DNA of 64,000 nt from Sulfurospirillum cavolei (GTDB taxonomy: Bacteria; Campylobacterota; Campylobacteria; Campylobacterales; Sulfurospirillaceae), in assembly GCF_001548055.1 (NCBI RefSeq), contig NZ_AP014724.1, positions 1,054,001-1,118,000 on the forward strand, in the 5' to 3' direction. The notes beneath the pieces were generated by a model. That model was not told where the DNA came from. It saw only the letters and a list, made by a program, of their open reading frames with translations, and did not search any database. A program made the position numbers and the translations under genes. Of this stretch, positions 33,355 through 39,726 are shown piece by piece. Numbering within the stretch: the first letter of the stretch is position 1; every line of letters begins with the position of its first letter.

Positions 33355-33364
33355 TTACATGTAA
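33355..33364. repeat. TKACATGTMA palindrome between flhA and the DHH gene
   Basis: TTACATGTAA in the 21-base gap after the flhA stop and before the DHH gene start. It overlaps the likely ribosome-site region of the DHH gene. Confidence 0.7.
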
Positions 33365-37169: not shown

Positions 37170-37782
37170 ACCCCTTTTTCGTTTCTTTCCTTCTCGCACG
37201 TTTGGTATGCGAGCATATTCACTCTTGTTTTAGCATATAGGTACTATTTAGATGGTAATTGTCATCACAACATGTTTGATCATAACTATGCAATTTTTAC
37301 ATATTGAGTCTAAATCACCTAGTTTTTTATAAAAAATAATACTTTTCATTATAATTTTTAAGGTTATGACGAATACCATATTACTGTTATATCACAGACA
37401 ATCAAATGTATGTTGTGTTACTCAAAAAGGGGCATCATAAGAGGTATGTACGTGTCTGGCAGTGTCCCATGTTAAGGCGTTTTGTTTCAAAACTACGTAA
37501 ACCTTGGCATTCCACTATTTCAGTTTTAGCCCCGTTGGCGGGAATTATGTATTGAAGTTTTAGGATTACATGTAAACCTTTTTCAAACCAAAAAGCTTTA
37601 CATGTAAAGAATAGAAGAACACCAAAGGAGGCAAATTGTGAGTTACAAACCAAGGTGGCATAAGCTAGGCAATATGACAAATTTAAAGATAAAAACAGGA
37701 GAAGAAATTTGAGAAAGTTAAACGTCAAACACCCGTTTTATTGCATTAGTGAAAAATATAAATAATTTAAGGAAAAATAAAA
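37170..37782. other. Long non-coding stretch with hairpin element and possible attC-like words
   Basis: No convincing gene. From left to right there is AT-rich DNA with a TATAAT at 37350-37355, then a structured block (about 37400-37545) containing words similar to integron attC sites. The first 47-base hairpin element (37566-37612) follows. After it, a near-perfect AAGGAGG leads a 24-codon ORF (GTG 37636 to TGA) that runs into an 18-codon ORF. Both are probably leader or remnant reading frames ahead of the exported-protein gene. Confidence 0.55.
37566..37612. repeat. 47-bp hairpin element, copy A
   Basis: Two TTACATGTAA palindromes flank a T5/A5 core. TTACATGTAAACCTTTTT pairs with AAAAAGCTTTACATGTAA at 17 of 18 positions around a 6-base loop. 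Copy B lies exactly 1000 bp downstream with 43 of 47 bases the same; the differences are in the loop, its edge and one stem position. No T-run follows, so a terminator role is weak. Confidence 0.85.
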
Positions 37783-38529
37783 TTGAGACCTAAAATTCGA
37801 AAAGGCTTGTATATACTAGCCGTTGTTATAGGAATAACTTCGTATGCTGGATCATTACCTGAGATAAATATTGAAGGATCTGATGCAATAAAGACATACG
37901 TTGCAAACGCTTCCTCTTCTGAAAAACAACAGATGCATAAACTGTTAGAAGCAGGGGATAAATTTGCCAAACTATTTTTGGATGGAGAAATTTGTGGTTG
38001 TGAACCATACGAAGAATGTCCAGTTGTAGCCGCATTAACCGAATATCCCATTGTAGATGATTTTTTACATAACTTTTGTAAAGGGTGGGAAGTAATATGG
38101 GTCAATAATCAAAGGGGTTTTAATCATTATTTGGTAGACACAGACACCCATTTAGTGTCCATAGATATTGATCCAAACGCCTATACGGCAGTTTTAACAT
38201 ATGAAAGTAGTTTGGTTGGTGTATTTATAGAAGGTCAAAGCACAAATGACAATGAGGATCTTATCGTGTCTTGGGATATCTCAAATCGAGGTAAGCATAT
38301 AAGTGTTAGTTTTACTTTTAATACCAATACCAATAAAGTCATTGATTACGCAAAAGGAAGTGAAAATGTTGATTATTACACTCAGAGCATTTGGTATCCA
38401 GAAAGTATGCTGGGTCGTGCAGCTTTTCTTAATTGGAGTGAAGAGCACAGAAAACGACAAAGAGACCTTGCGAATCAAATCAAAGCAGATCTTTTAAACT
38501 ACCAAAGAACACACAAAAACACAAAATAG
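37783..38529 (+). CDS. Exported protein of unknown function (accessory gene 1)
   Basis: 248 residues from TTG 37783 (AAGGAA 8 bases upstream). The N-terminus RKGLYILAVVIGITSYAG is a signal peptide or anchor. The mature part has Cys in DGEICGCEPYEECP, then a beta-rich middle (HYLVDTDTHLVSIDIDPNAY, ISVSFTFNTNTNKVIDYAKG) and a charged helical C-terminus (NWSEEHRKRQRDLANQIKAD). Base composition is clearly more AT-rich and Arg codon choice differs from the housekeeping genes, suggesting acquisition. No recognised domain. It lies between two copies of the hairpin element. Immunity-type or envelope-associated roles are guesses. Confidence 0.7.
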   Translation: MRPKIRKGLYILAVVIGITSYAGSLPEINIEGSDAIKTYVANASSSEKQQMHKLLEAGDKFAKLFLDGEICGCEPYEECPVVAALTEYPIVDDFLHNFCKGWEVIWVNNQRGFNHYLVDTDTHLVSIDIDPNAYTAVLTYESSLVGVFIEGQSTNDNEDLIVSWDISNRGKHISVSFTFNTNTNKVIDYAKGSENVDYYTQSIWYPESMLGRAAFLNWSEEHRKRQRDLANQIKADLLNYQRTHKNTK

Positions 38530-38565
38530 AAAGCATAGGGGTCAGGTCTAAATTTTTAACTTTCT

Positions 38566-38612
38566 TTACATGTAAACCTTTTTCAATGCAAAAAGTTTTA
38601 CATGTAAAGAAT
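38566..38612. repeat. 47-bp hairpin element, copy B
   Basis: Same architecture as copy A: TTACATGTAAACCTTTTT pairs with AAAAAGTTTTACATGTAA at 17 of 18 positions around the loop CAATGC. It starts 37 bases after the stop of accessory gene 1, preceded by the word GGGGTCAGGTCTAAATTTTT (38539-38558). Confidence 0.85.
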
Positions 38613-38659: not shown

Positions 38660-38722
38660 ATGAAAGAAAATCAATGGTTACAAGGGCAAGTGAAATCTTT
38701 ACATGTAAAGGAAGAAAAATGA
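38660..38722 (+). CDS. 20-residue leader ORF coupled to accessory gene 2
   Basis: A strong AAGGAGAGG site precedes ATG 38660. The ORF reads MKENQWLQGQVKSLHVKEEK and its TGA overlaps the ATG of accessory gene 2 (ATGA). It contains the palindrome TTACATGTAA (38699-38708), which encodes its LHV. Either a real leader peptide that couples translation or the tail of a lost gene. Confidence 0.45.
   Translation: MKENQWLQGQVKSLHVKEEK
38699..38708. repeat. TKACATGTMA palindrome in the accessory gene 2 leader
   Basis: TTACATGTAA, the fifth exact copy within 1.15 kb. It directly abuts the ribosome site (AAAGGAAG) of accessory gene 2. Confidence 0.7.
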
Positions 38723-39465
38723 AAAGGTTACTACTAATAAGTGGGCTTTTGATGGTAAATACGCTGTTACAAGCTGATAGTTACTTACTTGTAATGAGCA
38801 AAGATGACAAATTGTGTCAAAACATCACCACGATGTTCAATGAAGATCTTTTTAAACACAAAGAAGTGCGCTTGAAAGACCATAAAGAGTTTAATGTGGT
38901 GGTGTGGGATAAAGAGTTTGAGTTTTATCGTGCAAGCGGAGACCAAGATATACTCTATAGCGAACCACGTTGTGATAATGAGCAATCTCTGGGATGTAAA
39001 AATGCCATCTTTGATATTAACAATGACGGCAAAGATGAGCTTGTAGCCTATCTGGATGAACGTTTATATGGAACGGCTAGTTATAATCAAATCAGTTACG
39101 CACCACAAGAAGAGAATGGTTCTTTAAAGTTCAAGTACAGACAAAGCACTATTGTAGGTGATGAACACTATAAAGAATTTCCAGTACAAAGAGTTGCCAA
39201 AGATGGTTTCAAATTTTATATCACGTCCAGTTCATTTGTTTTACTCCGTCCGTTTAAAGTTGCCGATACCTTTTACATTGCGACATTTTTCAATACGTAT
39301 GGAAGAAATAATTGGGATCCCTATCGATATAACAGTAAAAACCTGAACGATAACAATATGGTTTCCATTAGCAAATATGACGCAAACAATGAACAGCATG
39401 ACCTATGCTACATGATACGTGTGTTTACCAGTCCAACCTTCACTAAAACAAAAAAGGCTAAATAA
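38719..39465 (+). CDS. Exported protein of unknown function with EF-hand-like DxNxDG loop (accessory gene 2)
   Basis: 248 residues from ATG 38719, chosen because MKRLLLISGLLMVNTLLQAD is a clean signal peptide behind AAAGGAAG. An open extension 15 codons upstream has neither. The mature protein includes CQNITTMFNEDLFKHKEVRL, paired Cys (PRCDNEQSLGCKN), and AIFDINNDGKDELVAYLDER, a calcium-binding-loop pattern (DINNDGKDE) as in FG-GAP or EF-hand proteins. A Tyr/Phe-rich beta region follows. AT-rich like gene 1 but not similar to it in sequence, despite equal length. Its stop overlaps the start of a decayed third frame by one base (TAATG). No function assignable. Confidence 0.7.
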   Translation: MKRLLLISGLLMVNTLLQADSYLLVMSKDDKLCQNITTMFNEDLFKHKEVRLKDHKEFNVVVWDKEFEFYRASGDQDILYSEPRCDNEQSLGCKNAIFDINNDGKDELVAYLDERLYGTASYNQISYAPQEENGSLKFKYRQSTIVGDEHYKEFPVQRVAKDGFKFYITSSSFVLLRPFKVADTFYIATFFNTYGRNNWDPYRYNSKNLNDNNMVSISKYDANNEQHDLCYMIRVFTSPTFTKTKKAK

Positions 39466-39726
39466 TGGCACTTTGATCGACTTGGGATAGGGTTATGTAT
39501 GATGTCTTTCAAAACAATGGTACTCTAAAATCCGATTTAAAAAATCTGGCGTCTTCTGTACGTAGTGATTTGAGCGATGAACAAGCTATTCAAGCAGTCA
39601 AAGATCTAAAGCTTTGTTGATAAGACTTGGCAGTTTAAAGCAGGCGGAGGTATCGATACGCCTAAAGCTTTAATGATTGACCTACGCCTGATCTCACTAA
39701 CGCTTTTTCTGACATGTCAGTCTTAA
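39465..39726 (+). pseudogene. Decayed gene downstream of accessory gene 2
   Basis: An ATG overlapping the previous stop opens MAL, then TGA, then in the same frame STWDRVMYDVFQNNGTLKSD and LASSVRSDLSDEQAIQAVKD, up to LKLC and TGA at 39618. Removing one T near 39613-39615 lets the frame continue VDKTWQFKAGGGIDTPKALM and IDLRLISLTLF to TAA at 39724. One in-frame stop plus one frameshift in otherwise protein-like sequence indicates a broken gene of about 85 residues, or a fragment of a larger one. Family not recognised. Confidence 0.6.
39710..39719. repeat. TKACATGTMA palindrome at the right edge of the accessory region
   Basis: TGACATGTCA, a fully symmetric copy, 17 bases before the HAIR-like site of the hrcA operon. 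Confidence 0.7.

What the first reader, a model, noticed from the sequence alone, without database searches (positions are those of the whole stretch)
37566..38612. Two copies of a 47-bp hairpin element exactly 1000 bp apart bracket an accessory gene
Each copy consists of two TTACATGTAA palindromes at the ends of an 18-bp imperfect stem with T5/A5 core. The copies differ at only four positions. They flank accessory gene 1, and copy B also precedes accessory gene 2. A fifth palindrome lies in the gene 2 leader. Repeated structured DNA separating unrelated single genes of alien composition is the layout of a cassette array or of REP-type mobile units.
Basis: partly seen in the sequence, partly recalled or inferred. 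Interest (0 to 1): 0.65.

Follow-up and report, generated by a model that had tools for sequence, protein, structure and literature searches.

The report
Genome-wide palindrome repeated throughout Sulfurospirillum
The two hairpins flagged here are built from a 10-letter palindrome, TTACATGTAA, that this bacterial genus keeps in up to about 1,500 places per genome, strictly enough to shape its proteins, so they point to an apparently undescribed genome-wide DNA signal rather than to a local gene-cassette array.

Summary
In detail: 47-bp copies at 37566 and 38566, 1000 bp apart, three (not four) differences, each a stable hairpin. Two layers explain it.

(1) Its unit, TTACATGTAA, is a highly iterated palindrome of Sulfurospirillum and its family: 69 in 400 kb of this genome and 213 in 380 kb of a relative, versus about 0.4-0.5 expected; up to about 1,500 per genome (TTACATGTMA); nearly absent from 22 other families of the order. 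Orthologous sites are kept (21/23 at 77% DNA identity; background 10-13%). The core ACATGT is strict, the flanks form "dialects". Leu-His-Val is 5-fold enriched and 89% encoded as TTACATGTA. Plasmids are depleted. Two nested lineages, both lacking an orphan D12 adenine methyltransferase, have lost the sites. Works like cyanobacterial HIP1 or a DNA uptake signal; reader protein unknown.

(2) The hairpin, two palindromes around a T5/A5 stem, is a small dispersed family, in relatives found at toxin-immunity junctions of RTX arrays. The window's 2.5-kb insert beside hrcA looks like a remnant. Copy B also abuts a REP motif belonging to a single-copy RAYT transposase.

The cassette/REP reading is partly supported; the larger finding is the palindrome. 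I found no prior description in open literature.

The parts
37566..37612 (+). Hairpin copy A: two TTACATGTAA palindromes (37566-37575, 37598-37607) around CCTTTTT-loop-AAAAAGC
37613..37678 (+). Leader after copy A, homologous to G016 RTX-module leaders (with copy A: 80% over 114 nt); ends in a short open frame MTNLKIKTGEEI*
38538..38563 (+). REP motif GGGGTCAGGTCTAAATTTTTAACTTT, same family as the motifs that bracket the single-copy RAYT gene elsewhere in the genome
38566..38612 (+). Hairpin copy B (stem 38562-38611)
   Evidence: whole 160-bp unit recurs at G000 C1:1855796-1855955, 76% identity
38699..38708 (+). Fifth palindrome, overlapping the probable ribosome-binding site of gene 2
39710..39719 (+). 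TGACATGTCA, dialect form, roughly where relatives with an empty site carry TTTACATGTAAA before hrcA
33355..33364 (+). Another exact TTACATGTAA
56824..56833 (+). Another exact TTACATGTAA
37200..39731 (.). About 2.5-kb insertion between the HTH/57-aa gene pair and hrcA; the empty site in relatives is about 70-100 bp
37783..38529 (+). Gene 1: 248-aa protein with an N-terminal hydrophobic stretch, no Pfam/NCBIfam hit; candidate orphan immunity gene (inference from position)
38719..39465 (+). Gene 2: 248-aa protein with an N-terminal signal-like stretch, no Pfam/NCBIfam hit; candidate orphan immunity gene (inference from position)

Best explanation
The hairpins are local composites of a genome-wide highly iterated palindrome, TTACATGTAA (core ACATGT). 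In Sulfurospirillum this palindrome is kept at hundreds to about 1,500 fixed places per genome by selection or biased conversion, most likely because a trans-acting DNA-recognition factor reads it as a mark of self chromosomal DNA. I think it most likely works like an uptake/exchange signal, possibly coupled to adenine methylation of its CATG core as with CtsM/RAATTY in Campylobacter jejuni; that step is inferred. The 47-bp paired form is a dispersed hairpin that in relatives sits at toxin-immunity junctions of RTX toxin arrays, where it encodes the toxin tail FTCK..QK.LHVK and may act as an RNA hairpin and as homology for module exchange. In the window two copies survive in a 2.5-kb insert beside hrcA that looks like a remnant of such modules. 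Copy B also lies next to a RAYT-type REP motif. Shown: iteration, conservation, dialects, loss, plasmid depletion, hairpin family, REP/RAYT. Inferred: what reads the palindrome, the uptake role, the immunity role of genes 1 and 2.
For: Copy number: TTTACATGTAAA 144 in this genome, reversed control 0; TTACATGTMA 563 here, up to 1,503 in same-genus genomes, 0-8 in 56 genomes of other families. Enrichment: 213 vs 0.47 expected in G020, 69 vs 0.38 in G000; one-off variants of the core at or below chance. Conservation: 21/23 at 77.5% identity vs 10-13% for other 10-mers. Loss nested in the tree: G009 0/26, G021 3/24. Proteome: LHV 103 vs 20.9 expected, 89% encoded as motif vs 1.7%. Intergenic density 2,251/Mb vs coding 389/Mb in G020; spacing slightly more even than random (CV 0.90 vs 1.02, p 0.014). 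Plasmids 40-200/Mb vs about 441/Mb. Orphan D12 methyltransferase tracks density within the genus (Mann-Whitney p 0.0006, not corrected for phylogeny). Hairpin family and RTX arrays; compensatory changes and G.U bias for + strand RNA (14 G.U vs 5 A.C).
Against: The methyltransferase is absent from G018, G010 and G027, whose cores stay strict, and present in g4 genomes that lack the sites, so it is not the sole determinant and its specificity is unknown. ComEC (PF03772) is kept by the lineages that lost the palindrome, which argues against simple loss of competence. Known uptake sequences are not palindromic. Genes 1 and 2 have no homologue among the loci I held, so the immunity reading rests on position alone.
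Confidence: 0.55

Rival explanations
1. HIP1-like product of methylation: an orphan adenine methyltransferase plus a methylation-dependent mismatch-repair process creates and maintains the palindrome, with no role in DNA uptake.
For: Palindromic; deviations concentrate at the outer positions while the core is strict, as reported for HIP1; orphan D12 methyltransferase correlated with density within the genus, and no restriction gene evident beside it in three genomes.
Against: Strict sites persist without that enzyme in G018, G010, G027; g4 genomes have the enzyme without sites. A different methyltransferase could fill in.
Confidence: 0.25
2. Binding site of a chromosome-wide structuring or regulatory protein, denser in intergenic and convergent regions, partly acting in terminator-like hairpins.
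For: Intergenic density six times coding, highest between convergent genes; strong conservation in place; plasmid depletion.
Against: About 1,500 sites with 63% inside genes (134 of 213), reshaping protein sequence, is unusual for a regulator; no candidate protein tested.
Confidence: 0.2
3. REP/BIME-type mobile units spread by the RAYT transposase.
For: Y1 transposase bracketed by inverted REP motifs in many genomes; REP motif directly before copy B and before the 1855k copy.
Against: The bracketing REPs lack the hairpin; the REP-like pattern has only 1-14 matches per genome against hundreds of palindromes; G016 and G021 hairpins lack REP; orthologous palindromes change mainly by substitution, not insertion.
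Confidence: 0.1
4. Integron-like cassette array with the hairpin as recombination site.
For: Hairpins recur between single genes and in a G016 array.
Against: Array modules are RTX toxin and immunity-like genes; homologous recombination between repeats suffices. Integrase genes were not searched.
Confidence: 0.04

Closest known systems
Highly Iterated Palindrome HIP1 (GCGATCGC) of cyanobacteria
   Same: Short palindrome grossly over-represented, mostly intact core with variation at outer positions, clade-specific alternatives, proposed link to orphan methyltransferases (PMC4390886)
   Different: Different phylum and sequence (10 bp, A+T-rich, CATG core); six-fold denser in intergenic DNA; methyltransferase link incomplete
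DNA uptake sequences (Neisseriaceae DUS, Pasteurellaceae USS)
   Same: Roughly one per 2 kb, intergenic enrichment, close pairs forming hairpins, coding footprint, dialects between species (comparison from own knowledge and the abstracts)
   Different: Palindromic rather than directional; uptake untested; ComEC kept in lineages that lost the motif
CtsM/RAATTY methylation-dependent uptake in Campylobacter jejuni
   Same: Same phylum; palindromic degenerate adenine-methylated site; orphan methyltransferase (PMC8468864, PMC8627207)
   Different: RAATTY is short and abundant (about 28,000 sites in C. coli); homology of the D12 enzyme to CtsM not tested
RAYT/REP elements
   Same: Single Y1 transposase gene bracketed by inverted REP copies, few dispersed copies; one abuts copy B
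   Different: The palindrome and the hairpin are separate from the REP motif
Polymorphic toxin/immunity arrays (RTX type)
   Same: G016 array repeats RTX-repeat proteins with DUF5625 or ankyrin proteins, hairpins at RTX gene 3' ends
   Different: Window keeps only two short genes and fragments; toxin identity not shown

Membership tests
HIP (highly iterated palindrome) | Palindrome of 8 bp or more, grossly over-represented across the chromosome | tested here: met
   213 vs 0.47 expected in G020, 69 vs 0.38 in G000; whole-genome counts
HIP (highly iterated palindrome) | Deviation biased to outer positions, core kept | tested here: met
   G000 one-offs 46 and 94 at positions 1-2; 4, 4, 3 at positions 3-5, at background
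HIP (highly iterated palindrome) | Cognate methyltransferase recognising the core | tested here: inconclusive
   Orphan D12 enzyme correlates within the genus but with clear exceptions; specificity unknown
DNA uptake sequence | Over-represented at about one per 1-2 kb with coding footprint | tested here: met
   545/Mb in G020; LHV/FTC footprint
DNA uptake sequence | Directional (non-palindromic) motif | tested here: not met
   Motif is a perfect palindrome
DNA uptake sequence | Promotes uptake by the competence machinery | not testable with these tools
   ComEC present in nearly all genomes including losers
REP/RAYT | Y1 transposase gene bracketed by copies of the repeat | tested here: not met
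   Bracketing repeat is GGGGTCAGGGCTAAACTTTTAAC, without the hairpin; met for that REP motif, not for the hairpin
Integron cassette array | Integrase gene and attC-type sites | not tested
   No integrase search was run
RTX toxin-immunity array | RTX toxin genes alternating with immunity genes | tested here: inconclusive
   RTX repeats alternating with DUF5625/ankyrin proteins in G016; the window insert keeps leaders and two short genes but no intact RTX gene

The most novel reading that the evidence does not exclude
TTACATGTAA is a methylation-coupled self-recognition signal for DNA exchange in Sulfurospirillaceae: a palindromic, dialect-forming equivalent of uptake sequences that has rewritten hundreds of codons per genome and is quickly erased when the system is lost.
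Probability: 0.3. Interest if true: 0.88.

Novelty: new variant of a known kind. Interest (0 to 1): 0.72.

Why it matters
HIP1 was described in 1995 and still has no settled function; it is known from cyanobacteria. A second, independent highly iterated palindrome in a distant phylum, with a strict core, dialects, nested loss and plasmid depletion, makes the question testable by comparison: which gene is lost when the sites are lost. It also shows a DNA-level constraint strong enough to enrich particular tripeptides (LHV, FTC) across a proteome, which matters for anyone reading protein or codon evolution, or studying DNA transfer, in these organohalide-respiring bacteria.

Tried and rejected
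Rfam: no match. Half-element pattern in the genus-wide contig collection: one hit, a Sulfurospirillum MAG. Methyltransferase as sole determinant: rejected, because strict sites persist without it. ComEC loss as the cause: not supported. PF01555 methyltransferases: patchy, no pattern. Syntenic check of the methyltransferase locus via a neighbouring amidase failed, because the amidase is itself absent from most genomes. Gene 1 against plasmids: no match. Methyltransferase against solved structures: none. Viral contigs with the 14-bp form: 120 or more, mostly with a single copy and not followed up. IQ-TREE gave no file; FastTree was used. Papers naming the palindrome: none found.

Full report
Observation. 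The two 47-bp copies are at 37566-37612 and 38566-38612, exactly 1000 bp apart. They differ at three positions, not four. Each folds as a stable hairpin (z -5.4 and -7.6). A fifth palindrome lies at 38699-38708. In the window TTACATGTAA with up to one mismatch occurs 21 times against 2.15 expected, so the palindrome is not confined to the element.

The palindrome is genome-wide. The window lies in a single-contig 2.70-Mb genome (G000). Its genus is Sulfurospirillum: G017 of the same genus carries a second contig identical to plasmid pSDCE1 of S. diekertiae ACSDCE. TTTACATGTAAA occurs 144 times in G000, its reversed control never. TTACATGTMA occurs 563 times in G000 and 68 to 1,503 times in 23 same-genus genomes, 6 to 739 times in 20 other genomes of the family, and 0 to 8 times in 56 genomes of 22 other families. 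In sampled stretches the 10-mer is 213 against 0.47 expected in G020 and 69 against 0.38 in G000.

It is a defined motif with dialects. In G020, G014, G015, G016 and G023 most ACATGT sites are the exact 10-mer. In G000 the density of ACATGT is the same or higher (823/Mb against 743/Mb in G020) but the flanks are relaxed (TT, TG, GT, CG, TA, CT), while one-off changes inside ACATGT stay at background. This is relaxed specificity, not decay. In G021 core one-offs are raised (9 against 3.5 expected), as expected for decay. G024, G033, G010, G018, G027 and G025 also have TTACATGTAA among their strongest words.

It is maintained in place. Over 60 kb around hrcA, 21 of 23 aligned G015 sites are identical in G016 at 77.5% identity, where other 10-mers are identical in 10-13% of cases. 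In G009 and G021, closer to G015 by DNA identity (81-82%), 0 of 26 and 3 of 24 are kept. A DnaK/HrcA/FlhA tree places G009 and G021 inside a clade (support 1.0) whose other members, including the deeper G014 and G016, keep the sites, so the sites were lost. At former sites G009 has diverged more inside the motif (0.357) than in the flanks (0.242), which suggests removal rather than passive decay; the comparison is conditioned on conservation elsewhere and has 21 sites.

It shapes the proteome. In G020 coding sites fall in the frames Leu-His-Val and Phe/Leu-Thr-Cys-Lys and mostly avoid the frame with a stop. Leu-His-Val occurs 103 times against 20.9 expected and 89% are spelled TTACATGTA against 1.7% expected from codon usage; in G009 and G026 the effect is weak or absent. 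Density is 2,251/Mb between genes and 389/Mb within genes. Spacing is a little more even than random placement (CV 0.90 against 1.02, p 0.014). Plasmid pSDCE1 and two stretches of pSulSP carry 100, 40 and 200/Mb against about 441/Mb for the chromosome (whole-genome TTACATGTMA rate of G017).

What reads it. An orphan D12 adenine methyltransferase (PF02086; G000 C1:269305-270312) has no evident restriction gene beside it in three genomes. Within the genus, genomes at least 90% complete with it have 209-516 sites/Mb and those without have 26-395 (Mann-Whitney p 0.0006, not corrected for phylogeny). But G018, G010 and G027 keep strict cores without it, and g4 genomes have it without sites. I therefore treat it as a lead. 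ComEC is present in 41 of 44 genomes, including the losers. In Campylobacter, uptake depends on CtsM methylation of RAATTY, and in Helicobacter pylori hpyIM methylates CATG; these make a methylation-coupled reading plausible, not shown.

The hairpin. The 47-bp form is a small dispersed family: a 160-bp relative at G000 C1:1855796-1855955 (76%), four copies 2.6-3 kb apart in G016, two in G021, and single copies elsewhere. In G016 the hairpins lie at the 3' ends of RTX-repeat proteins, followed by DUF5625 or ankyrin proteins, and encode tails such as FTCK..QK.LHVK; the frames through copies A and B read the same pattern. Pair counts show some compensatory change (6 cells, 0 of 500 shuffles) and more G.U than A.C cells on the + strand (14 against 5), consistent with an RNA role; the palindromic arms inflate pairing by construction.

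The window locus. In most relatives examined the HTH/57-aa pair lies about 70-100 bp from the hrcA region; G000 has about 2.5 kb there. The closest relative, G002, has an RTX-like protein and apparent secretion genes upstream of hrcA instead. Genes 1 and 2 have no Pfam or NCBIfam match and no homologue in held loci. I read them as orphan immunity genes of a degraded RTX module set, an inference from position.

REP/RAYT. The REP-like pattern has 1-14 matches in each of 24 Sulfurospirillum genomes, and in many of them an inverted pair about 823 bp apart brackets a Y1 transposase gene.

Limits. No prior description of this palindrome was found.

Noticed in passing
G000 C1:269305-270312 (L322:9305-10312): Orphan D12 adenine methyltransferase, 335 aa, conserved in most of the family, no evident restriction gene beside it in the three genomes checked.
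   Followed up: partly
G000 C1:2417063-2417906 (L260): Single Y1 transposase (RAYT) bracketed by inverted GGGGTCAGGGCTAAACTTTT(A/T)AC; similar arrangement in many genus members, often at comparable map positions.
   Followed up: partly
L299:5600-19600 (G016): Array of RTX-repeat proteins with DUF5625 and ankyrin-repeat neighbours, beside a large RTX protein.
   Followed up: partly
G002 C13, upstream of hrcA (L079): RTX-like protein and apparent type I secretion genes where G000 has its 2.5-kb insert: an insertion hotspot.
   Followed up: no
window, whole: TCGATATCGA is also over-represented (count 8 on both strands, 0.35 expected); minor next to TTACATGTAA.
   Followed up: no
L209-L214 (G026): In a family member without the motif the top word is TATCATGA (49 vs 8 expected), also with a CATG core.
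   Followed up: no
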